64,000 nucleotides of DNA from Limnohabitans sp. WS1 (GTDB lineage Bacteria > Pseudomonadota > Gammaproteobacteria > Burkholderiales > Burkholderiaceae_C), in the NCBI RefSeq assembly GCF_003063265.1, contig NZ_NERU01000002.1:1-64000 (forward strand), given 5' to 3'. Below, one piece after another: positions 16,393 to 27,074 of the stretch. Every line of letters begins with the position of its first letter. Position 1 is the first letter of the stretch. The notes beneath the pieces are model-generated. The model was not told the DNA's origin. It did no database searches and saw only the letters and a list, made by a program, of their open reading frames with translations. Both the position numbers and the translations under genes were made by a program.

Positions 16393-16522
16393 GGCACCCT
16401 CCTTGGAATGTATCTATGAAAACGTACCTACTTTATCACCAAGAAAATGATTCAGGCCAAGTCAAAAACCCACAGCTGAATTGATCTTGACACCGCGCAC
16501 GATACGATTTCCATTCCATTCA

Positions 16523-16559
16523 AATCATATATTGATATGATTAAGCCATGAAATCATAT
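16523..16559 (+). promoter_or_regulatory. Probable operator of fic gene 1
   Basis: A perfect 8-bp inverted repeat (AATCATAT and ATATGATT, 4-bp centre, 16523-16542) lies directly before the start codon at 16548. A third half-site AATCATAT recurs inside the first codons (16552-16559). The layout suggests an autorepressor bound over the start of the gene. Confidence 0.5.
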
Positions 16560-17735
16560 CAACGTTGGATTTGGCAGCTGCCAGAGTGGCCAGCATTGGT
16601 GTTCGACGCGAAGCGAATCCAGGCGGCATTGGCGGCCGCAAGAACATCCCAAGGAATTCTTCTTGGCAAAGCGGAGGCGATTGGCCTGGAAGGGCTGCAG
16701 CCCCACATCCGCGACTCGCTGACGCAAGAGGCATTGACCACCTCAGCCATTGAAGGCGAAAAGCTGGACCCTGAAAGCGTTCGCTCCTCCGTGGCCCGGC
16801 GCTTGGGGCTGGACACGTCTGGTGCCCCCGTACGCGAAGGCAGGCGCAACATCGAGGGACTGATCGATGTGCTGCAAGACGCCACCCTGAACACCGATTC
16901 ACCCTTGACGCTGGAGCGGCTGTGCAGCTGGCACGGGGCGCTTTTCCCAACGGGTTTTTCGGGCATGCAGCGCATCGATGTGGGCGCACTGCGTTCTGTG
17001 CCCATGGAGATCGTGAGTGGGGCCGTGGGCCACAGCAAGGTGCATTACGCCGCGCCACCCGCTGAAGGCCTGGCTAGCCAAGTGGACGCTTTTTTGACGT
17101 GGTTCAACCAAACCCAGCCCAAGGTCGGCACTCACCCCATGGACGGCTTGGTGCGTGCCGCTGTCTCGCATCTGTGGTTCGAGACGCTGCACCCCTTTGA
17201 CGATGGCAATGGGCGCATCGGCCGGGCTATCTTGCAATTGGCACTGGGCCAAGACATGGGGCAGCCTGGGCGCATCGTGACGCTGTCGAGGCAAATCGAG
17301 TCCTGCAAAGACCGGTATTACAGCGAGCTGGAGCGGGCGCAGCGTTCCAAAAGCATGGACGTGACGGCATGGGTCGAATGGATGCTGGAGCAAGTCACAC
17401 TGGCCAGCGAGTTCGCCAACCGCACCATTGATTCGGCCATTCAACGCATTCGGTTTCAGGCCCAAATGTCATCGGTCTCGCTCAATGAACGTCAGCAAAA
17501 AACCATGAAGAAGCTGCTGGATGCTGGCCCCAAAGGTTACGAAGGCGGCATGACCACGCGCAAGCACGAGCGTATTGCGCAAACCTCCACACCCACAGCA
17601 GCCCGAGACCTCATCGATCTGGAAAGGCTTGGGCTGCTCACCCGGTACGGTGATGGTCGATCAACACGGTATTACCCCGCGATAGAAGGCTGGGCCGAGG
17701 ACGATGCCAAATTGGGAAAATCCAGTGGAACTTGA
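16548..17735 (+). CDS. Fic family protein with canonical catalytic motif
   Basis: A 395-aa protein with a DUF4172-like N-terminus, the inhibitory motif TSAIEG (about 65-70) and the complete Fic motif HPFDDGNGRIGR with catalytic His215. The C-terminus looks like a winged helix (ARDLIDLERLGLLTRYGDGR). It is predicted to transfer AMP to a target hydroxyl and to be held off by the inhibitory glutamate. The palindrome over its start suggests that it, or a partner, regulates its own gene. It sits beside vapBC in the toxin-rich island. Confidence 0.92.
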   Translation: MKSYQRWIWQLPEWPALVFDAKRIQAALAAARTSQGILLGKAEAIGLEGLQPHIRDSLTQEALTTSAIEGEKLDPESVRSSVARRLGLDTSGAPVREGRRNIEGLIDVLQDATLNTDSPLTLERLCSWHGALFPTGFSGMQRIDVGALRSVPMEIVSGAVGHSKVHYAAPPAEGLASQVDAFLTWFNQTQPKVGTHPMDGLVRAAVSHLWFETLHPFDDGNGRIGRAILQLALGQDMGQPGRIVTLSRQIESCKDRYYSELERAQRSKSMDVTAWVEWMLEQVTLASEFANRTIDSAIQRIRFQAQMSSVSLNERQQKTMKKLLDAGPKGYEGGMTTRKHERIAQTSTPTAARDLIDLERLGLLTRYGDGRSTRYYPAIEGWAEDDAKLGKSSGT

Positions 17736-17916
17736 GACGCAAGACACAAGGCGCGGTGTATGCCACATTGAAACGCTTGGAGGAATCGACGTGAAAAGCC
17801 TGAAAGACGTAAAAGCCCAACTGATGGCCAACCCCGCCGTTCGCCAAGCCTATGACGCACAGGCACCCGAGTTTGAGCTAGCCCGTGAACGGATTGGAAA
17901 ACCCATCCACGAATGA
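17732..17916 (+). pseudogene. HigBA-like toxin tail and truncated antitoxin
   Basis: A GTG at 17791 with GGAGG before it starts a 41-aa product (KSLKDVKAQLMANPAVRQAY, then EFELARERIGKP). This matches the helical start of XRE-type antitoxins of the HigA kind but stops before the helix-turn-helix. Just upstream, another frame (17732-17794) ends KTQGAVYATLKRLEEST, resembling the last helix of a HigB-type toxin. The pair looks like a deleted toxin-antitoxin module. Confidence 0.5.
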
Positions 17917-17937
17917 CAGGGATGGGGCTTGACGGCT

Positions 17938-19176
17938 TCAGTGGCGATAACTCGCCGCAACACCCGTGGTTGTGGGCATGCGTTCGGCCACCAGAACATG
18001 CACTTGGCCGCCTAACTTCTCAACCAAAGTGCCCAGGTCGTCCAACACATCGTCGACCCTGGGGTAGCCGAGTTGGGAATAGTCGATGCGGCCTGTTGTG
18101 CCATCGATGCGCCCGGCGACCAGGCGACCGGCTTCGATCAACAAGATGCCCACGCGTCCCGCTGCGGCCGCATGCGCCACATCGGCCAAGTTGTCGCTGC
18201 CCAGTCCCTTGGACTTGGCCACGGCGTAGTCGTTGCACCATGCGCTTTGTTGGGCTTGTTGTGCCGGGGCGGCCACTGCCCAGGCGCGTTGCTGCAACTC
18301 GGTGGGGCTCAGGCTTTCGGGGTTGATGAGCAGGCCCTGCTTCATCAGCCGCGGGTTGTGGCTGATGGCCTGAAACAGGTGGTGGTGTTCAGGCAAAGCT
18401 GCCAGCATCAGGGGCAAGCCCGAAACGTCGGAGTGGTGCGCCTGCACCGCCCGATCCACCGCCCGGAAAAAGCGCTCCACCTCGCTGTCCATGCCGTCTT
18501 TCTTGCCGCCTTGCCCGTGGTGCATGGCCGAATGGCCAGCGCCCAGGCCACCGTACGATGACACCGAGCTGTGCGCCGTTTGTTGGCGATCGCTGCTCGT
18601 GTCGCTTGAAGAGCGCGGAACCTCTGACGCCAAGCTCAAAGCCTCCAGGCTGTCGCGGTTGCCCTCGAACAGTTGCACCTTGTTCAAGCTCAAAGCCAAG
18701 ACTTGGTAACGCTCAACCGATTGCAAAAATTGCCGCAAAGGTTGGGTGTGAAAGCTGTCGGCCACCACCGCCAAGTCGGCCACCACCGCCAAGTCGGCCA
18801 CCACCGCCAAGTCGGCCACCACCGCCAAGTCGGCCACCACCGCCAAGTCGGCCACCGGTCTGGGCAACACGTAGATGCGGAAAAAATCAGTCGCTCCCAT
18901 CACCACCAGCCCGTCGAGCGTGTGCTCCCAAAACGCGTGGTCGTTTTCCAAGGCCTCAAATGGCGCGATGAGGGCGCGCAGTGCATCGGGCGCTTGGTGC
19001 TGCAGGGATGTCTTCAGTGCGCCAACCAGATGGCGAAAACGGATCGGATCTTGCTGGTTATCGGGGTGACTGCGGTGGGTGCCCATGTACAGAGACAGGC
19101 AGGGCCGAGCGTGCAACCCAACAAGTTCCTCCAGGCTGGCGCTGGTCAGCTTGAGTGGGGTGTGACGAGCTTGCAT
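17938..19176 (-). CDS. baeRF-domain protein (release factor 1-like)
   Basis: A 412-aa protein resembling the bacterial archaeo-eukaryotic release factor (baeRF) group. It starts with LYMGTHRSHPDNQQDPIRF, and its C-terminal half contains VGILLIEAGRLVAGRIDG. Such proteins are thought to act on ribosomes, but their role is not established. The start at 19176 is chosen because the longer frame lacks family similarity. The middle holds five exact copies of a six-residue unit (DLAVVA) from an 18-bp minisatellite, and the neck after it is a Ser/Gly/His-rich linker. Confidence 0.75.
   Translation of the reverse strand: MQARHTPLKLTSASLEELVGLHARPCLSLYMGTHRSHPDNQQDPIRFRHLVGALKTSLQHQAPDALRALIAPFEALENDHAFWEHTLDGLVVMGATDFFRIYVLPRPVADLAVVADLAVVADLAVVADLAVVADLAVVADSFHTQPLRQFLQSVERYQVLALSLNKVQLFEGNRDSLEALSLASEVPRSSSDTSSDRQQTAHSSVSSYGGLGAGHSAMHHGQGGKKDGMDSEVERFFRAVDRAVQAHHSDVSGLPLMLAALPEHHHLFQAISHNPRLMKQGLLINPESLSPTELQQRAWAVAAPAQQAQQSAWCNDYAVAKSKGLGSDNLADVAHAAAAGRVGILLIEAGRLVAGRIDGTTGRIDYSQLGYPRVDDVLDDLGTLVEKLGGQVHVLVAERMPTTTGVAASYRH
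18761..18850. repeat. 18-bp minisatellite, five exact copies
   Basis: The unit GCCACCACCGCCAAGTCG is repeated five times without change, with a partial sixth copy following. The period is a multiple of three, so copy-number change would keep the frame of the surrounding baeRF gene and alter protein length by six residues per unit. Exact identity implies recent expansion or assembly-sensitive variation. Confidence 0.9.
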
Positions 19177-19396
19177 GCAAATTCCTTTTTGTTGGCGTTG
19201 ACACCATGACGGCGAGACCTGCCCCATGGGCAGTGCGCTGACAGTGCCGCAGAGCGCGGCACCTGGGGCCTGGGCTCAGGCCAAGGATTGCATGCAGTCT
19301 GCGTTGTCAGCCTTGCACAGTCTGTACTTCAACGAACGGTCTAGCGCCATGCCCGTGCTGTGGGGGCGCGTGCCGTGGTGCGCATGGCGCCTTTGA

Positions 19397-19690
19397 CGGC
19401 TGCGTGAACAGCTGCTGCAACGTAAGCTCAGCGTGGGCACCGTCGATGCGCTTCAGGGCCAAGAGCGCGCCATCATTGCCATCACCTTGACACGCAGCAA
19501 CCCCCTAGGCGAGATCGGCTTCCTGTCTGGCATCCGCCGCATGAACGTGGGCATGACCCGCGCACGGCGCAAGTTGTTGCTGGTGGGCGACTTGTCAACG
19601 CTTTGCAGCCATCCGTTTTTTGGTGAGATGTTGGCTTATGTGAAGGGGGTGGGGGGTTACCGGATGGCGCATGAGATGGGCAAACCTGAA
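19397..19690 (+). pseudogene. C-terminal fragment of a superfamily 1 DNA/RNA helicase
   Basis: The frame carries the last helicase motifs of UvrD/Dna2/Upf1-type enzymes: VGTVDALQGQERAIIAITL (motif V) and RRMNVGMTRARRKLLLVGD (motif VI). A stop lies at 19394 and no upstream helicase sequence exists, so more than 80 percent of the gene is gone. After about 19690 the reading is no longer helicase-like. Confidence 0.7.
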
Positions 19691-19893
19691 TGGTCGGACA
19701 CCGTCACATCCGGCACAGAAGCCATCGCATCGCTCGGGTCCATGGGCGAGGCGTGGCGCACCAAAGCGGTGGATGACACCTTCAAAGCCAGCGCCAGACG
19801 CTGTAGGGCCAGCACCCCAGGTTTGGGCTCGCCACCCGAAAGCAGCCGGTGCAAATAGGCCCGCGTCAACCCTGCCCGCTCGGCCTGTTCGTT
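19657..19893 (-). pseudogene. Fragment of an XRE-type helix-turn-helix regulator
   Basis: The minus strand reads NEQAERAGLTRAYLHRLL, then SGGEPKPGVLALQRLALALK, the second half of an XRE helix-turn-helix domain. An in-frame stop lies directly upstream, so the first helices and the start codon are missing. It faces the helicase fragment and overlaps its 3' end. It is probably a remnant of an antitoxin or phage-type repressor. Confidence 0.45.
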
Positions 19894-20246
19894 TGGCCTT
19901 CAACCTAATAAGCGGGAGCGGCGGGATACAAAGTCCAACAGGGCTGTTTGAAGTTAAGCCGCTAGTTCTGGCGGTTCTGACATGGTAATGTGGTGTTGGG
20001 ATATGGCACCGAAATAATTAATTTTATAAAAAAGTTAATTACAAATAAAAAATAAATAAAATAAATGATATTGATACAAACAACTTCTGAAAATTTTCCA
20101 AACACTTCCCCACGTCCCAGACTGTGCACCCAGTCACAGCTTGTTACCCCTTTCTTTGTTCTGAACCAAAGATATCGCTGACAACACGCACACACACTGC
20201 GGCCGGTTTGGCCTCATCCCCAACTTAAAGTAAAGAAAGTACAAGC
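19894..20246. other. AT-rich 353-bp intergenic region
   Basis: The centre (about 20015-20080) is a run of A/T-rich DNA (for example AAAAAATAAATAAAATAAAT), clearly unlike the GC-rich surroundings. No gene, RNA or strong hairpin was seen. It probably holds the promoter of the following DUF1566 gene and may mark an insertion boundary. Confidence 0.4.
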
Positions 20247-21035
20247 ATGAGAAGCATTGCATGGCAAACGAAATGGAAAAACTCAAGGGTAAACATCCAA
20301 CCATCAGCTAGATTGGTGCTTTCACTCGTGACGTCCGTAGTGTTAGTGGCTTGTGGGGGCGGGTCAGGTTCCGGGGAAGGTGCTGGTGCAGGTGCAGGTG
20401 CAGGTGCAGGTGCAGGATCAGGATCAGGATCAGGATCAGGATCAGGAGCAGCCACAAGCAAACTACCCCACACCGGAATCACCGCCAGCCAGTGCTACAG
20501 CGCGGGCAGCAACACCCTCATGACATGCAGCGGTGTGGCCAATGACTTGAACGCCCAGCAAGACGGGCACCGCGCCAACATTAACGCCATGAGCTATAGC
20601 AAAGTGGGCTTTAGCGGCGAGGCCTTGCCTGACAACGCCAGCAGTTGGTGCGCGGTCAAAGACAACGTGACTGGCCTGCTGTGGCAAAACCACCAAGTCC
20701 CCCCCGCCACCTTCACCAATTGGGGCGACAACCGCGCAGGTGACGCCAGCAAGTACGCGGCTGATAACGCCACCCTGTGTGGGCAGAGTGGTTGGCGCTT
20801 GCCCACCGTGGACGAACTGCAGTCCATCGTGGATTACAGCAAGCCTTTCCCCGGCCCCACAATCAACACCGCCTGGTTCCCCAACACGCCGAGCTATTCT
20901 TACTACTGGGCGTCGTCGCCCTATGTGGGCGCTACCCCCGACCTCGCCTGGAACGTCTATTTCGGCCGGGGCAACGTCGGCCCCAACTACCGCCGCTACA
21001 GCCACCCTGTTCGGTGGGTGCGTGCCAGTCAGTGA
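20247..21035 (+). CDS. DUF1566 lipoprotein, DGR target protein 1
   Basis: A 262-aa protein with a lipoprotein signal (lipobox LVAC), a Gly/Ala then Gly/Ser repeat linker (about residues 44-67) and a DUF1566 (Lcl C-terminal, C-type-lectin-like) domain with NVTGLLWQ and GWRLPTVDELQSIVDY. The last 43 codons form a variable-repeat-like region ending VRWVRASQ, nearly matching the end of the second DUF1566 gene. It lies 30 bases upstream of the Avd-like gene. The likely role is a surface-displayed ligand-binding protein diversified by a retroelement. Confidence 0.85.
   Translation: MRSIAWQTKWKNSRVNIQPSARLVLSLVTSVVLVACGGGSGSGEGAGAGAGAGAGAGSGSGSGSGSGAATSKLPHTGITASQCYSAGSNTLMTCSGVANDLNAQQDGHRANINAMSYSKVGFSGEALPDNASSWCAVKDNVTGLLWQNHQVPPATFTNWGDNRAGDASKYAADNATLCGQSGWRLPTVDELQSIVDYSKPFPGPTINTAWFPNTPSYSYYWASSPYVGATPDLAWNVYFGRGNVGPNYRRYSHPVRWVRASQ
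20381..20452. repeat. Hexanucleotide repeats encoding a Gly-Ala/Gly-Ser linker
   Basis: GGTGCA-type units are followed by five GGATCA-type units, together encoding a flexible linker between the lipid anchor and the DUF1566 domain. Unit gain or loss keeps the frame and would change how far the domain reaches from the membrane. Confidence 0.85.
20907..21035 (+). repeat. Variable repeat 1 (VR1) of the DGR
   Basis: The last 129 bases of target gene 1 align with the last 129 bases of target gene 2. Conserved blocks include TCGTCGCCC, TATTTCGGC, GGCAACGTC and a 3' block GGTGCGTGCCAGTCAGTGAT. Between blocks the codons differ mainly at NNY-type positions, as expected where a template had adenines. 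The conserved 3' block would be the initiation-of-mutagenic-homology segment. Confidence 0.65.
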
Positions 21036-21039
21036 TCGG

Positions 21040-21050
21040 GCGCGAAGCGC
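21040..21050. promoter_or_regulatory. Hairpin downstream of VR1
   Basis: GCGC-GAA-GCGC lies 4 bases after the stop codon of target gene 1. Known DGR targets need a short hairpin or cruciform just after the variable repeat. VR2 has a different hairpin at the same relative position. Confidence 0.45.
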
Positions 21051-21065
21051 TTTGGACATAAAAGC

Positions 21066-21650
21066 ATGAGCACACCTCTACCGTCCATCTACCCCAACTG
21101 CCGCAGGTTGCTAGTGCCGACCGAAGACATGGTGCTGCGTTTCAGCTGTTACCACAAATATACCCTGGGCACCGACTTGCGTCAGTCAGCCATGGGCATC
21201 ATGCGCACCGTCAATCAAGCCGTGTACGACAAACCGCGCCAGGCCCAGCACGTGCAGGCTCTAGTTTGGCGGGGGGACGACTATAAGCCGACGCCGCAGC
21301 TGAGCATGGGCGTGGGCCTATTTGCTCCTGGTCAACAAGGTAGTGCTGGTGGTGCAAATGCAGCGGGTATATCGCAGGCTAGGGTCAAAGCAAGATTGAG
21401 CTTCCAAAATTTTGAGCAAGCGGCCACCCTTGCCGCTGCCGTTGGCAAACAGTGCGGCAGTTGGGTGCAGGTTTTGGCCCGTCGCCTTCGCCGACGCGCA
21501 GAGCAAGCTGCTCCGTCTGGCATGGCCAGCGCGGGCGCCGGGTCACAGCCTGCACCGCCGGTGCAGTACCATCCCGCTTCACTGAGTGGATGCGCCACCT
21601 CTGTGCCCTTGGGCTCTGCAGAACTACTAGGGCCAGAGGGCAAACCATGA
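21066..21650 (+). CDS. avd: Avd-like DGR accessory protein
   Basis: The first 125 residues look like the four-helix-bundle Avd family that pairs with DGR reverse transcriptases (FSCYHKYTLGTDLRQSAMGI, then FQNFEQAATLAAAVGKQCG). A central Gly/Ala-rich insert is unusual. After about residue 135 the sequence loses family character, and the product is 194 aa, longer than a typical Avd, so the tail may be former intergenic DNA. It overlaps the reverse transcriptase start (ATGA). Confidence 0.7.
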   Translation: MSTPLPSIYPNCRRLLVPTEDMVLRFSCYHKYTLGTDLRQSAMGIMRTVNQAVYDKPRQAQHVQALVWRGDDYKPTPQLSMGVGLFAPGQQGSAGGANAAGISQARVKARLSFQNFEQAATLAAAVGKQCGSWVQVLARRLRRRAEQAAPSGMASAGAGSQPAPPVQYHPASLSGCATSVPLGSAELLGPEGKP

Positions 21651-22543
21651 CAAAGCCATGCTACCTGCGTTCTGCCAACCGCGCGGGCAAAGGCAGCCAC
21701 GCGGCGGTGGACCGCCTGCATGCTTTTATGCGCCAGCGCAACGGGCATGGATGGTTGATGTGCCGCTACCTCTACACCCGCAAGAGCTCGGGCGGCGGCG
21801 CGCTGCGCAGCCTGTGCCACAAACTGCTGGCACAGACGGTGCAAGAGTGGTGCGCCGATCCTGCCGCTGCCGTCAAAGTGCCGCCACATAAGCGTCTGCG
21901 CAATGCGCCCGCCGGTTGCGGCTTGCCCATTGGCAACCTGACTAGCCAGTTTTTTGCCAACGTGTACCTCAATGAGCTGGACCAATTCGTCAAACAGACG
22001 CTCAAAGCCAAGCACTATGTGAGCTATGTGGGCGACTTTGTGCTGCTGGCCCCCAACGCGGCCACCCTGCGCCAGTGGTACGACCAAATTGCGCAGTTTT
22101 TGCAAGCGCGTTTGAGCTTGCGGCTCAAAGACGAACCCCGCCTGGCCCCGCTGGCGCAGGGGGTGGACTTTTTGGGCTATGTGCTCTACCCCAGTCACCG
22201 TTTGGTGCGTCGCCGAGTGGTGGCGCATTGCAAGGGCAAGCTGAGCGCCTGGGCGCAGCGCCATGTGACCTTCCGTTATGTAAACGCGCGTCATGCCCGT
22301 CTTGATAGGGCATCCATGGATTCCCGCCTTCGCGGGAATGACGCTCAGGGGCTGCACAACCAATGGCCGCTTGCGGTGTGCAGCGTGCAGCGAGCAAAAA
22401 GGCTACGAAACCCTGCGCTTTGCCTCGCCGCAAACGCCCGACGTCAGCCGCGTGCACGCCAGGCAAACCGGCTGGCTGCGCCACGGCACCAGCAGGCGCG
22501 AAATCACTCACTTCCAAATTTTTACGGAGATCGCACCATGAAT
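21647..22543 (+). pseudogene. DGR reverse transcriptase, degenerate
   Basis: The sequence has the DGR-specific motif GLPIGNLTSQ (IGxxxSQ instead of QGxxxSP), then FFANVYLNELDQFVKQTL and the QGVDFLGYVLYPSHRLVRRR region. Four lesions are visible. The N-terminal palm sequence is short, starting near GKGSHAAVDRL. The segment that should hold the first catalytic Asp (motif A) is missing before LCHKLLAQ. The YVDD box reads YVGD (22025-22036). The C-terminus is replaced by a 55-bp inverted-repeat element at 22289. The frame stays open into target gene 2. The enzyme should be inactive. Confidence 0.8.
22289..22343. repeat. Short interspersed inverted-repeat element
   Basis: A 55-bp element with near-perfect 11-bp terminal inverted repeats (CGTCATGCCCG and CGGGAATGACG) and an inner hairpin ATTCCCGCCTTCGCGGGAAT. 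Elements of this kind are scattered in genomes of Comamonadaceae and relatives. It interrupts the 3' end of the reverse transcriptase. Confidence 0.75.
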
Positions 22544-23041
22544 AAGCCACTTTTTGCCAGTTTGTTGGCCGCTACACTGTTTGCCTCTACAGTGAGGGCA
22601 CAAATCTGCCCCACTTGGCCCACGGCAGACCGCTTTACCCTGAACGGGGCGGAAGTGATCGACAAGCGCACCGGTCTGACCTGGAAACGCTGCAGTGAGG
22701 GCCAGAACTGGAACGGCAGCACTTGCACCGGCAGCGCTACGTTACACAACCACGAGGCTGCTTTGACACTGGCTAAAGCCGCCAACACCAGCCAAAGCGC
22801 CACCCTCTGGCGCCTGCCCAACGTGAAAGAGCTGGCCAGTCTGGCCGACAATGGCTGCCAACCCCCCGCGATCGACAACATGGCATTCCCGGCCACACCA
22901 CCTAGCTCGTTCTGGTCTTCGTCGCCCGATGTGGGCGACGCCAGCTACGCTTGGTACGTATATTTCGGCTATGGCAACGTCTACAGACTCGACCGCGGCA
23001 ACCACTACGTCCATGTTCGGTTGGTGCGTGCCAGTCAGTGA
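22538..23041 (+). CDS. Secreted DUF1566 protein, DGR target protein 2
   Basis: A 167-aa protein with a clear signal peptide (MNKPLFASLLAATLFASTVRA) and a DUF1566 domain (KRTGLTWKRCSEGQNW, then LWRLPNVKELASLADNGC). Its ending VRLVRASQ is almost identical to target 1. GGAG 10 bases upstream supports ATG 22538 even though the reverse transcriptase frame runs in unbroken. Unlike target 1 it has no lipobox or repeat linker, so it should be released or periplasmic. Confidence 0.85.
   Translation: MNKPLFASLLAATLFASTVRAQICPTWPTADRFTLNGAEVIDKRTGLTWKRCSEGQNWNGSTCTGSATLHNHEAALTLAKAANTSQSATLWRLPNVKELASLADNGCQPPAIDNMAFPATPPSSFWSSSPDVGDASYAWYVYFGYGNVYRLDRGNHYVHVRLVRASQ
22913..23041 (+). repeat. Variable repeat 2 (VR2) of the DGR
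   Basis: This aligns with VR1 from the Trp codon to the stop. The two share framework residues (W, SSP, VG, AW, VYFG, GNV, VR, VRASQ) and differ at the exposed positions between them. No template repeat with matching blocks was found anywhere in 19-24 kb. Confidence 0.65.
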
Positions 23042-23046
23042 TTGGG

Positions 23047-23059
23047 GCGGCGTAGCCGC
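23047..23059. promoter_or_regulatory. Hairpin downstream of VR2
   Basis: GCGGC-GTA-GCCGC follows the stop codon of target gene 2 by 5 bases. Stem sequence differs from the VR1 hairpin but position and shape agree. Confidence 0.45.
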
Positions 23060-23087
23060 ATTTGGTTTGTTGAATCAGGTAGCGCGG

Positions 23088-23227
23088 CAAACCCATGGCT
23101 GATTTGGCTTTGGCCCGCAAACGATTATTAGATGTGAAACATGCTCAGCCATGATGAACTGATTGCCAAGTTGCTCGACAACCCGCAAGTGCGGGCCGCA
23201 TTGTCAATGTCAGCGCCTGCTGGATAG
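23088..23227 (+). pseudogene. Remnant of a HigBA-type toxin-antitoxin pair
   Basis: One frame ends ADLALARKRLLDVKHAQP, resembling the last helix of HigB/RelE-type toxins. Overlapping it, ATG 23141 starts a 28-aa product (DELIAKLLDNPQVRAAL) like the N-terminus of HigA-type antitoxins, then a stop. Both genes are reduced to junction fragments. This is the second such remnant in the window. Confidence 0.45.
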
Positions 23228-23283
23228 AGGTCACACGCCTCGTTGTGTCGGCTTTCAGCGATGGGTTGTCGCTGTCACCGTGA

Positions 23284-26079
23284 TCAATTTTCTGTGGTTT
23301 TGGTTTTGCGTGATTTCTTGGCGGCTGGCGCAGGCAGCAGGCTGGTGATGCGTTGGTACAGCTCGAACAGGAAGGCCACGCGTTCGGCGTCGGAGGCGTA
23401 GGACTTTTTGCCGCCGCTGGGTTGGTAGGCGGCGTCTACGGCGGTGTCTAGTTTTTGGTGGGCCTTGAGCAGGGCCGGGGGCATGGTCAGTGGGTCGTAG
23501 AGGTCGGCCAGTGATGCGTCTGCAAATTGGGCGCGGGCGTCGAGCACGCATTGGGCTGCTTGTTCGATGGAGTTGCGGTGTTTGTCGCTGAGTGGTTCGC
23601 CAGCGAAGCCCGGCCAAGGGTAGTTGTTGTAGACGATGCTGATTGAGTACGAAAAATCACTTTTGAGGCGTCCGCTCACTGATCTGGTCCATGCCATGTG
23701 CATTGAAGACTGAAGGATGCCAAATTCGGCCAAACTGGCTTTGGGTAGCAGACGCAGTTTGTTACTTGCAAGAGTGGAGGGTGTAAGGTAGCCAAGCGGT
23801 ATGTATTCGCGGCGCTCTGAAGATACTTCTGGGATTGCCAAGTAAGGGCTTGTGGGCATGAACTCAACATGAAATCGTGTCGGGGTATCTGCAAGTTTCC
23901 GCGTTGGAGGACTTTTGCTGGAAAGGCGTGAAGCTTTAACCGCTTGAACACGTTTCATCGCTTCAGGCATTGCCCTGAGTGCCGTCGGTGAACAGTCGCC
24001 TAACCAAAGGCACCAGCGTTCGTAGCCATTCAAAAATTCGTCGGCACCCAACCAGCGGCGAAACCACTTTTCACTTTGGGGCTCAAGCGCAATGAATGCG
24101 TCACGCTCTTCTGTGCTGAAAAGGTAGCTGCCATCGTCAATGGGTTTGTTTCCAATGCCAATTTCGGGAACATCGCAGATGGGGTTGTTCCGTCTTGGCA
24201 AAACGACATCAGGTGCATCCACCAAGTAAGGATTGATGTTCTTTGCAGGCACGGCTAAAGGCGTGCCCTTGATGTCTACATATTCGTAGATCGTTTTATT
24301 GGTGAGGTCTTGCAGCCCAAAGCCTACGATCACGCAATGCACGGCGGCTTTTCCTCTTGCCTCATTGCTCCAGTTGAACGTGCGGTGTGCAAATTGAATG
24401 CGAATGCCTTGGCTGAGCATCCAGCCCCACAGCACGCCAACTTGCTCGCCTTGGGTGATGCTGTTGGTGGAAACAAAAGCGCAGCGGCAATTCGTTTCAG
24501 ACTTCACATATCGCGTGGCCTTCACATACCAAGCCGCCACAAAGTCCAGCAGCCCCGAGTTGTCGATGCCTTCAAAAACGAGACGCGAGTCTTCGCGTTG
24601 AGCATCGCCCATGAATTTGGCACCGATGAACGGCGGATTGCCCAGCAAGTAACTGCACCGCCCAGCAGGCAGCACATCGTTCCAGTCCAGCCGCAGCGCG
24701 TTGGCGTGGCGTATTTGCGGTGAGCTTTTGAGCGGTATGCGCGCAAAGTACAGGCCAAACTCCACGCTCACGCGCAGGTTCATTTGGTGGTCCACCAGCC
24801 ACATGGCCACTTGGGCAATTTGGGCCGGAAACTCTTCGATCTCGATGCCAAAGAATTGGTCCACGTTCACGCCGATCAGGCTGTGCACATCCATCGTCAA
24901 CTGGCCTTTGTGGGCGCTCAGTTCGTGGTCGGCCCGCAGCACTTTCAGCTCCAGCTCGCGCAGTTCGCGGTAGCTGATGACCAAGAAGTTGCCGCACCCG
25001 CAGGCGGGATCAAAAAACGTCAGCTGGCGCAGCTTTTTGTGAAACTCAAACAGCTTGTTGCGGTGGCCTTTCACGCGCTCAAACTCGGCGTGCAGTTCGT
25101 CCAGAAACAGGGGCTTGATGACTTTGAGGATGTTGTTTTCAGACGTGTAGTGCGCACCCAAAATACGACGGGCCTTTTCGTCCATGATGCTCTGAAATAA
25201 GCTGCCAAAAATCGCCGGGCTGATGGCCGACCAGTCGAGCCCACAGGCGTCCAGCAGGGCTTCGCGCATGGCGGTGTTGAAGTCGGCCATGGGCAGGGTT
25301 TCTTCAAACAGGCGGCCGTTGATGTACGCAAACTGGTTCAGCTGTTCGTCGATGTTTTTGCTGCGCTGGCTTTCGTGTGTGTTGAGCACCTGAAACAGTT
25401 GCCCCAGGCGCGGCCCCAGGTCCGAGCCGTCGGGCGCGGTGCGTTCTTCGACAAAGTCTCTGAACGATTGCGCGGGCTGGAAGATGCCCGTGTCATCGGC
25501 AAACAAACAAAACAGCAGACGCACCAGCAGCACCTCCAGCGCGTGGCCGCTGTAGCCGCTGGCCTTCAGGGCGTCATGCAGTCGGCCCATGCGTTCGGCG
25601 GCCCTGATGTTGACCGGGTCTTCGGCCTGGATGTCTTGCACCTTGTAGCCCGCCAGCAGGCCAAACAGCTTGACGTGTTTGTGCAGGTGCTTGAGTTCAA
25701 ATTCCACCGTCTCGCCCGTGGCCAAGCGGCGCACCCGAAAGCGGGCAAAGTCGCACACCACCACCAGCTGGGGCAGGTCGCGCTCGGGCAGGTTGTGCAG
25801 GTAGCCAATGGCCTGGTCCACCGCGTTGTCCAGGTTTTTGCCGCGCGACTTGTGCTCCACCAACAGCACGCCGGGCCAAAACAGGTCCACAAAGCCTTGT
25901 GCGCCGCCGAGCTTTTTGACGTTCAGCTCAAAGGTGGCGACGCGTTTGTTGGTGATGCCAAAGATTTCAAAGAAGTCGATCCAAAAGGGCTTGGCTTCGC
26001 TGTCTTCGTTGCAGGCGTCGGCCCAGGTTTTGCTGAATTGCAATGCCCTGGATTTGATTTCGTTCCAATTAAGACCCAT
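23284..26079 (-). CDS. MmeI-like type IIL restriction-modification enzyme
   Basis: A single 931-aa chain. The N-terminal PD-(D/E)xK nuclease shows D65, E75 and K77 (VDLFWPGVLLVEHKSRG), the same D-x9-E-x-K spacing as MmeI. A helical linker follows, then an N6-adenine methyltransferase with motif I DPACGCGNF (357-365) and motif IV NPPF (481-484), and finally a target-recognition region and a helical end. Such enzymes methylate one strand and cut about 20 bp away, with one domain recognising DNA for both activities. All key residues are present, so it is probably active. Confidence 0.9.
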   Translation of the reverse strand: MGLNWNEIKSRALQFSKTWADACNEDSEAKPFWIDFFEIFGITNKRVATFELNVKKLGGAQGFVDLFWPGVLLVEHKSRGKNLDNAVDQAIGYLHNLPERDLPQLVVVCDFARFRVRRLATGETVEFELKHLHKHVKLFGLLAGYKVQDIQAEDPVNIRAAERMGRLHDALKASGYSGHALEVLLVRLLFCLFADDTGIFQPAQSFRDFVEERTAPDGSDLGPRLGQLFQVLNTHESQRSKNIDEQLNQFAYINGRLFEETLPMADFNTAMREALLDACGLDWSAISPAIFGSLFQSIMDEKARRILGAHYTSENNILKVIKPLFLDELHAEFERVKGHRNKLFEFHKKLRQLTFFDPACGCGNFLVISYRELRELELKVLRADHELSAHKGQLTMDVHSLIGVNVDQFFGIEIEEFPAQIAQVAMWLVDHQMNLRVSVEFGLYFARIPLKSSPQIRHANALRLDWNDVLPAGRCSYLLGNPPFIGAKFMGDAQREDSRLVFEGIDNSGLLDFVAAWYVKATRYVKSETNCRCAFVSTNSITQGEQVGVLWGWMLSQGIRIQFAHRTFNWSNEARGKAAVHCVIVGFGLQDLTNKTIYEYVDIKGTPLAVPAKNINPYLVDAPDVVLPRRNNPICDVPEIGIGNKPIDDGSYLFSTEERDAFIALEPQSEKWFRRWLGADEFLNGYERWCLWLGDCSPTALRAMPEAMKRVQAVKASRLSSKSPPTRKLADTPTRFHVEFMPTSPYLAIPEVSSERREYIPLGYLTPSTLASNKLRLLPKASLAEFGILQSSMHMAWTRSVSGRLKSDFSYSISIVYNNYPWPGFAGEPLSDKHRNSIEQAAQCVLDARAQFADASLADLYDPLTMPPALLKAHQKLDTAVDAAYQPSGGKKSYASDAERVAFLFELYQRITSLLPAPAAKKSRKTKTTEN

Positions 26080-26267
26080 TTTGTACTCATAAAGTGAGTC
26101 TGGATGTTAATGGAAAGTTCTCTATTTTTAAGATTGTTGGATCTATATGGGTCACAAAACGGGCTATGCAAAGCATTTCCTACCGTGTCTTCACGTATGG
26201 CACAACCCTTGGGGCTGGTTAGCATCGGTCTCTTGCCCTTGCTACTGACCGAGCCCCCAACATCACC

Positions 26268-27074
26268 ATGCGACTCATCACCCCTGCTTTGCTGGCAACA
26301 AGTTTGCTGACCGCCTGCGCCACGCCTCAAACGCCGTTGAGTGCTGACCCCATTGCCGTGGTCGCGGCGGGCAGTTTGCGTGAAGCGATGACCGACATTG
26401 CAAGAGCGCATGAAGCGCGTACCAGTCAAAAATTGACCTTGTCTTTTGCCGCCTCTGGCCTGCTTCGCGAGCGCATCGAAAAGGGGGAAGCGGCCCAGGT
26501 TTTTGCGTCGGCCGACATGGGCCATCCGCAAAAACTGGCGGACGCCGGCAGTTGGAGCGCGCCACGCGTGTTTGTGCGCAATCAACTGTGTGCGCTCACC
26601 CAAGCCCATCTGAATTTGACGCCTGAGCGTTTACTGGGTGCTTTGCTCGATCCAGCCATCCGCCTGGGCACCAGCACGCCCAAGGCCGATCCGGCGGGTG
26701 ACTATGCGTGGGCACTGTTTCGGAAAGCCGATGCGCTGAGTGCAGGCGCTTACGCCACGCTGGACCGCAAGGCTTTGCAGTTGACCGGCGGCCCCAGTTC
26801 GCCCAAACCCCCGGCAGGTCGCGGTGCCTACGCTTGGGTCATGGACCAGGGGCAAGCCGACATTTTTCTGACCTATTGCACCAATGCGGTGGCGGCACAA
26901 CAAGAGGTACCGCGTTTGAAGATCGTGGCCGTGCCGCCGCAGTTGCAGGTCTCTGCGGGCTATGGCCTCACCGTGCGCCGTGGTGCCCACCCCGCTGCAC
27001 AGGCCTTCGCCGACGCCCTGCTGGCACCCAGCGCACAGACCATCTTTGCACGCTATGGCTTTGGCAGCCCTTGA
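26268..27074 (+). CDS. ModA-like substrate-binding lipoprotein, orphan
   Basis: A 268-aa protein with a lipobox (LLTAC) and the ModA family fold: VVAAGSLREAM, SFAASGLLRERI, VFASADM, and a C-terminal VPPQLQVSAGYGLTV. It resembles the molybdate/oxyanion binders that lack nearby ModB and ModC. No permease or ATPase gene is adjacent. It may share the transporter of another system or bind another small ligand. It lies between the restriction enzyme and a toxin-antitoxin pair. Confidence 0.82.
   Translation: MRLITPALLATSLLTACATPQTPLSADPIAVVAAGSLREAMTDIARAHEARTSQKLTLSFAASGLLRERIEKGEAAQVFASADMGHPQKLADAGSWSAPRVFVRNQLCALTQAHLNLTPERLLGALLDPAIRLGTSTPKADPAGDYAWALFRKADALSAGAYATLDRKALQLTGGPSSPKPPAGRGAYAWVMDQGQADIFLTYCTNAVAAQQEVPRLKIVAVPPQLQVSAGYGLTVRRGAHPAAQAFADALLAPSAQTIFARYGFGSP

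What the first reader, a model, noticed from the sequence alone, without database searches (positions are those of the whole stretch)
20247..23060. Relic diversity-generating retroelement with two DUF1566 target genes
Two genes end in near-identical VRASQ variable-repeat regions. Between them lie an Avd-like gene and a reverse transcriptase with the DGR-type IGxxxSQ motif. Targets, Avd and RT together are a DGR signature. One target is a lipoprotein with a repeat linker, the other a secreted protein, so one element may have diversified two differently placed binding proteins. Decay of RT while both targets stay open suggests selection on the frozen variants.
Basis: partly seen in the sequence, partly recalled or inferred. 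Interest (0 to 1): 0.85.

Follow-up and report, generated by a model that had tools for sequence, protein, structure and literature searches.

The report
Dead protein-diversifying element, two targets
This is the broken remnant of a known kind of bacterial element that rewrites binding proteins at random; its two binding-protein genes survive open, but the template it copied and the working enzyme are gone, so it most likely can no longer act.

Summary
Window 20247-23041 carries two Lcl_C (DUF1566) genes, an Avd-like gene and a DGR-clade reverse transcriptase (RT) remnant. Relatives, closest L015 (MAG UBA7470), keep the order T1-Avd-TR-RT-T2 with a template repeat (TR) and an open RT frame. 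Against them the window element is dead: one deletion removed the TR and the RT start, a second removed RT motif A, the thumb is shortened and frameshifted, and YxDD (first Asp in 94 of 94 relatives) reads YVGD. No TR and no second DGR RT was found in the genome. VR1 and VR2 are about 75% identical, not near-identical; they differ at 23 of 39 positions that are A in L015's TR against 10 of 91 others, the mark of past adenine mutagenesis. Death is recent relative to the split from L015, so open target frames do not demonstrate selection on frozen variants. The element lies between a baeRF gene and an MmeI-type restriction gene; three congeners have no DGR beside that baeRF gene but TIR/STAND-like, patatin or kinase genes that look defence-related. 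Degenerate DGRs, multi-target DGRs and DUF1566 targets are all published. It is a dead new member of a known kind.

The parts
20247..21035 (+). Target 1 (T1): lipoprotein-like N-terminus (LVAC, read by eye), Gly-Ala/Gly-Ser repeat linker, C-terminal Lcl_C (DUF1566) domain
   Evidence: Pfam Lcl_C 6.6e-26; sequence
20906..21032 (+). VR1, 3' end of T1
   Evidence: core compared with L015 TR: 20 of 33 A and 2 of 46 non-A positions differ
21066..21650 (+). Avd-like ORF, altered: extra residues and Leu-to-Pro changes relative to four relatives
   Evidence: phrog_3206 4.2e-8; NF033474 0.005; alignment
21668..21673 (+). Deletion junction 1: the sequence after Avd is joined to the RT near ANRAGKGSH; 584 bp present in L016 (4066-4649), with the TR and the RT start, are missing
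21674..22266 (+). RT remnant (piece before motif A, then motifs B to D)
   Evidence: phrog_1423 8.1e-43; tree
21756..21799 (+). Deletion junction 2: motif A region (LQLDxxNFF in relatives) missing
22022..22036 (+). RT motif C region reads SYVGD; relatives RYxDD (R and first D in 94 of 94)
22267..22349 (+). Palindromic-repeat stretch in the RT thumb; 83 bp stand where L015 has 407 bp, which include a related repeat
   Evidence: the only exact copy found in the genome
22350..22541 (+). RT C-terminal remnant, ending in another reading frame (...QTGWLRHGTSRREITHF)
22538..23041 (+). Target 2 (T2): signal-peptide-like N-terminus (read by eye), Lcl_C domain
   Evidence: Pfam Lcl_C 1.2e-31; model pLDDT 90, top fold match Lcl C-terminal domain 8q4e, E 5e-3
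22911..23038 (+). VR2, 3' end of T2
   Evidence: core compared with L015 TR: 18 of 33 A and 7 of 46 non-A positions differ

Best explanation
A two-target diversity-generating retroelement, probably acquired laterally, that has died. In its working ancestor, as in intact relatives, the RT with Avd copied one TR with random bases opposite its adenines, and the cDNA replaced the variable 3' ends of two Lcl_C genes, one probably lipid-anchored and one probably secreted, giving new binding surfaces on a C-type-lectin-like fold. In this lineage a deletion took the TR and the RT start, further lesions removed motif A, part of the thumb and a catalytic aspartate, and the two VRs are no longer rewritten. 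Shown: anatomy, RT kinship, the lesions, no TR and no other DGR RT found in the genome, adenine-biased VR differences. Inferred: the copying mechanism (from the known family), the cell location and binding role of the targets, lateral arrival, the order of the lesions.
For: Same order with a TR in L015-L018; adenine-only TR-VR pairs in 82 of 95 related loci, none in window 16500-27000 nor in 9 other loci of this genome; RT tree; first Asp of YxDD 94 of 94 in relatives, Gly here; VR1-VR2 differences at 23 of 39 TR adenines against 10 of 91 others, p = 3e-8; no third VR-like copy in the genome, next matches E 0.09 or worse; the other three RTs of this genome score 396-405 bits as group II intron RTs (cut-off 300) and the RT piece finds only itself in this genome at 1e-10; both Lcl_C domains found in the genome lie here; three congeners with the same baeRF neighbour lack it.
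Against: No other strain of this species was available, so fixation and age are not measured. The TR used for the adenine test is L015's, not the lost one. The Avd match is weak and below curated cut-offs. VR2 has 7 of 46 non-A differences from that TR, more than a freshly written VR should have. The genome is a 48-contig assembly (99.99% complete by the tool's figure), so an unassembled TR cannot be wholly excluded. Binding-site columns that vary for other reasons could also concentrate differences at the same sites, though the TR of L015 is a separate sequence whose adenines predict them.
Confidence: 0.93

Rival explanations
1. Dead machinery, but the targets are kept by selection as frozen, useful binding proteins.
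For: T1 and T2 are open while the RT has deletions and a frameshift; window-only against L015-only changes are 2:3 in T2 and 12:11 in T1, no excess, against 9:5 in RT and 11:6 in Avd.
Against: RT and Avd excesses are not significant (p 0.42 and 0.33); pairwise dN/dS to L015 is alike for all four (T2 0.234, T1 0.334, Avd 0.237, RT 0.275), so most of the signal predates death; at 1-3% neutral change both frames survive in 61-23% of simulations, though only 10% at 5% and 1% at 10% (indels not modelled).
Confidence: 0.3
2. The targets are still diversified in trans by another DGR, as proposed for some loci of Thiohalocapsa PB-PSB1 (PMC10907252, passages read).
For: Trans activity is proposed in print; VR1 is close to the L015 TR at non-adenine sites (2 of 46 differ).
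Against: No TR-like sequence found and no other DGR RT found in this genome.
Confidence: 0.03
3. The RT remnant is a decayed group II intron or retron RT beside unrelated paired Lcl_C genes.
For: TIGR04416 matches the piece at 5.2e-10; generic and defence RT models in PADLOC match it.
Against: 39 bits against a cut-off of 300; tree placement; same gene order and a TR in relatives.
Confidence: 0.01

Closest known systems
Two-target DUF1566/Lcl_C DGRs of Proteobacteria and others (here L015 UBA7470, L016 Hydrogenophilales, L017 Methylovulum, L018 Methylococcaceae)
   Same: gene order, RT clade, Avd, Lcl_C targets with C-terminal VRs, VRASQ/VRAGQ ends
   Different: the window lacks TR, RT start, motif A and the first catalytic Asp; its T1 is 262 aa, L015's is over 1,100 aa and only the C-terminal part matches
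Degenerate DGR loci of Thiohalocapsa PB-PSB1 (PMC10907252; passages read)
   Same: machinery missing or pseudogenised, MITE-like repeats at damaged places, targets kept
   Different: there each class keeps one complete locus in the genome; here none was found
DUF1566 as a common DGR target domain, and DGRs with several targets (PMC6642488, PMC4159848, PMC3521204; passages read)
   Same: domain (first two papers), several targets per DGR, VR in the target ORF
   Different: the passages read describe DGRs with TR and RT
Legionella Lcl C-terminal domain (8q4e; PMC11162425, listing and start of abstract only)
   Same: Pfam family name and top fold match of the T2 model (E 5e-3, TM-score 0.41 by query, 0.52 by target)
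   Different: 17% identity over the aligned columns; ligands of T1 and T2 unknown

Membership tests
Diversity-generating retroelement (as a remnant) | RT of the DGR clade | tested here: met
   tree of 102 rows, relic with L015 98/83; 8ub7 6e-22
Diversity-generating retroelement (as a remnant) | Template repeat near the RT | tested here: not met
   not found in window or genome; missing by deletion relative to L015/L016
Diversity-generating retroelement (as a remnant) | VR differences concentrated at TR adenines | tested here: met
   23/39 against 10/91 with the L015 TR, p 3e-8; p 3e-6 to 1e-5 with the L016, L017, L018 TRs
Diversity-generating retroelement (as a remnant) | Avd accessory protein | tested here: met
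   phrog_3206 4.2e-8, position and alignment; below the Pfam and NCBIfam cut-offs
Diversity-generating retroelement (as a remnant) | VR at the 3' end of a C-type-lectin-like target | tested here: met
   Lcl_C; T2 model tops with Lcl C-terminal domain and C-type-lectin-like folds, none under E 0.001
Functional DGR | Intact catalytic RT (motif A Asp, YxDD) | tested here: not met
   motif A missing, YVGD
Functional DGR | IMH site or hairpin beside the VR | not tested
   not examined
Functional DGR | Ongoing VR diversification in a population | not testable with these tools
   no strain or read data
Group II intron or retron RT | Groups with those RTs | tested here: not met
   (3 group II rows, 4 retron-like rows that were below their family's cut-off); 39 of the 300 bits needed for TIGR04416

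The most novel reading that the evidence does not exclude
The slot between baeRF and the MmeI-type gene is a defence-type hotspot of the genus, and the two-target DGR was taken up there as one more phage- or rival-facing module whose last-written binding proteins are kept and still work after the writer was lost.
Probability: 0.12. Interest if true: 0.6.

Novelty: new member of a known kind. Interest (0 to 1): 0.33.

Why it matters
It is a clear fossil in which the lost parts can be named against living relatives, and it shows that DGR targets can outlast template and enzyme in a genome where no backup copy was found. If sister strains were sequenced, it would allow a direct test of whether frozen DGR targets are kept by selection. 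As a mechanism it adds nothing new.

Tried and rejected
VR1 against VR2 alone could not identify adenine sites; the TR of L015 solved this. A search for a third VR-like copy in the genome gave only matches with E of 0.09 or worse. PADLOC and NCBIfam gave only generic or other-class RT hits. Viral contigs: best identity 64%; plasmids: 34 records, all below 60%; L015 has 74%. The phage record collection was not searched. Selection on the targets was considered and left open. The palindromic repeat as the killing lesion was rejected, because L015 carries a related repeat at the matching thumb position in an RT frame that is open apart from a masked stretch. Rfam and tRNA scans of the window gave nothing. 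A PDB sequence search of T2 found no relative (best E 0.68).

Full report
Observation. Window 20247-23041 holds, all on the + strand, T1 (20247-21035), an Avd-like ORF (21066-21650), an RT remnant and T2 (22538-23041). Pfam gives Lcl_C (the tool's name; that it is the former DUF1566 is from recall) for both targets (6.6e-26, 1.2e-31), weak bAvd (16.8 bits, cut-off 40) and sub-threshold RVT_1 from profile position 91. PHROGs name the Avd (4.2e-8) and an RT family (8.1e-43). The VRs are 74.6% identical over 138 bp; only the edges are close (26 bp at 88%, 36 bp at 92%). These two Lcl_C domains are the only ones found in the genome at E <= 0.001.

Relatives. The closest, L015 (MAG UBA7470, 74%), then L016, L017 and L018, show the order Lcl_C target, Avd, TR, RT, Lcl_C target; in L015 VR1 and part of the RT are masked. 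An ungapped scan for repeats whose mismatches fall on adenines found such pairs in 82 of 95 loci (80 and 15); 13 gave none, and one of the 82 (L080) fails a stricter filter. The same scan found none in window 16500-27000 and none in 9 other loci of this genome. After the stricter filter, VRs lie on both sides of the RT in 20 of the 95 loci, only upstream in 44, only downstream in 12; many loci are cut by contig ends or were held with short flanks. The two-target layout is therefore ordinary in this part of the family.

RT kinship. In a tree of 102 rows (relic, 94 of the 95 loci with L104 left out, 3 group II RTs of this genome, 4 retron-like RTs that scored under their family's cut-off), 138 columns, the relic joins L015 (98/83) in a clade with L016-L018 (100/94); group II and retron-like rows lie outside. 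The program warned of few columns, an unsettled bootstrap and long outgroup branches. The PDB search ranks 8ub7_A first (6e-22; the tool says only 'Reverse transcriptase'; that it is the Bordetella phage DGR RT is my recollection), group II protein LtrA next (9.6e-7).

How it died. Against L016, window 21667 and 21674 correspond to 4065 and 4650: 584 bp with the TR and the RT start are gone. Window 21756-21799 stands where L016 has 245 bp (part of it an insert of its own) with motif A. At 22267-22349, 83 bp with a palindromic repeat stand where L015 has 407 bp of thumb and repeats, and the RT C-terminus ends in another frame. Motif C reads SYVGD; Arg and the first Asp are invariant in 94 of 94 relatives. 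L015 has a related repeat at the matching thumb position, so the repeat probably came with the element; its 26-base pattern (one free base, no mismatch) occurs once in this genome, here, which fits arrival from elsewhere but does not prove it, since variants were not sought genome-wide. The other three RTs of the genome are group II type (396-405 bits, cut-off 300).

VR evidence. With L015's TR as reference, VR1 and VR2 differ at 23 of 39 adenine positions and 10 of 91 others (p = 3e-8); the L016, L017 and L018 TRs give p of 3e-6 to 1e-5. In the core where L015's own TR and VR2 have no non-A mismatch, VR1 and VR2 differ at 21 of 33 A and 6 of 46 non-A positions; VR1 has 2 and VR2 has 7 non-A differences from that TR. 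This hints that VR2 was last rewritten earlier than VR1, but the numbers are small and the lost TR may itself have differed from L015's.

Selection. Window to L015 dN/dS: T2 0.234, T1 0.334, Avd 0.237, RT piece 0.275. Changes at outgroup-invariant columns, window-only against L015-only: T2 2:3, T1 12:11, Avd 11:6 (p 0.33), RT 9:5 (p 0.42) (T1 was compared without L016). Loss of function is thus recent against the split from L015. In a simple substitution simulation both targets stay open in 61%, 47%, 23%, 10% and 1% of runs at 1, 1.6, 3, 5 and 10% change. Open frames alone do not show selection; that neither target frame is broken by an indel is mildly in favour.

Targets. The T2 model (41 sequences, pLDDT 90) has as top Foldseek matches the Legionella Lcl C-terminal domain (8q4e, E 5e-3), Bd2740 (8oks), the adhesin InvE and C-type-lectin-like proteins; no match reached 0.001, and Mtd (1yu4) is rank 48. 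T1 starts with a lipobox-like LVAC and a Gly-Ala/Gly-Ser linker, T2 with a signal-peptide-like start; these are read by eye. L015's T1 is over 1,100 aa and only the C-terminal part matches, so the N-terminus has been exchanged or lost in one of them.

Place in the genome. The RT piece was found in none of 59 other congeners sampled (E <= 1e-10) and in 15 of 398 other family genomes (E <= 1e-15). The left neighbour (baeRF) has a 95-98% identical match in 3 of 59 congeners. In two of them (L233, L235) both flanks match the window; in the third (L234) only the left flank was seen within the 15 kb fetched. None shows T1, Avd, RT or T2 in the fetched stretch (best tblastn E 0.20). Beside baeRF lie instead a TIR protein with a sub-threshold STAND match (L233), a patatin protein (L235), or a kinase and a gene with DUF5655 and a sub-threshold NucS match (L234). 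PADLOC matches these, from weak (L235, 5.9e-5) to strong (PDC-S18 1.1e-85 in L234), and the right neighbour in the window is a type IIG restriction-methylation enzyme. Three genomes are too few to call the slot a defence hotspot with confidence. Family-wide, 137 of 399 genomes have Lcl_C at E <= 1e-10 against 16 with this RT, so Lcl_C genes often occur without it.

Prior work. DUF1566 targets and multi-target DGRs are described (PMC6642488, PMC4159848, PMC3521204; passages read). Degenerate DGRs with missing or pseudogenised parts, and MITE-like arrays in their place, are described for Thiohalocapsa PB-PSB1 (PMC10907252; passages read). In PMC8144416 three passages were seen; two speak of DGRs scored inactive by SNP measures. 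A paper titled 'Diversity-Generating Retroelements in Prokaryotic Immunity' (PMC10053308) was seen only in a listing. No search asked for a DGR in a baeRF-MmeI slot, so I make no claim that this is absent from print.

Verdict. A real, dead, two-target DGR: a new member of a known kind, of modest interest.

Noticed in passing
about 19680-23292; L233:9335-11664, L235:3484-6389, L234 below 11620: Slot between a baeRF gene and an MmeI-type gene with different cargo in three congeners (DGR relic here; TIR/STAND-like, patatin, kinase genes there): looks like a defence-type hotspot.
   Followed up: partly
18757-18856: 18-bp in-frame tandem repeat in the baeRF gene: 5 exact copies in the window, 1 in L233 and L234, 0 in L235; in L235's genome (G026) the baeRF match is in two pieces.
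   Followed up: partly
L015:4188-6029, L016:4314-5987, L017:4227-6044, window 22267-22349: In-frame palindromic or repeat inserts in RTs of this small clade; among 127 RTs (66 cellular-scan, 61 viral loci) with motifs A and B found, L015 and L016 have the two longest A-to-B spacings (144, partly masked, and 112 aa; median 67); L017's insert lies before motif A.
   Followed up: partly
19433-19858: Fragment of an AAA_12 helicase-like gene (2.2e-17) at the left edge of the slot.
   Followed up: no
21452-23041: An open frame of 529 aa joins the RT remnant and T2; automatic annotation could call a false fusion protein.
   Followed up: no
22911-23038: VR2 carries more non-adenine differences from the L015 TR than VR1 (7 against 2 of 46), as if T2 was frozen earlier.
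   Followed up: partly
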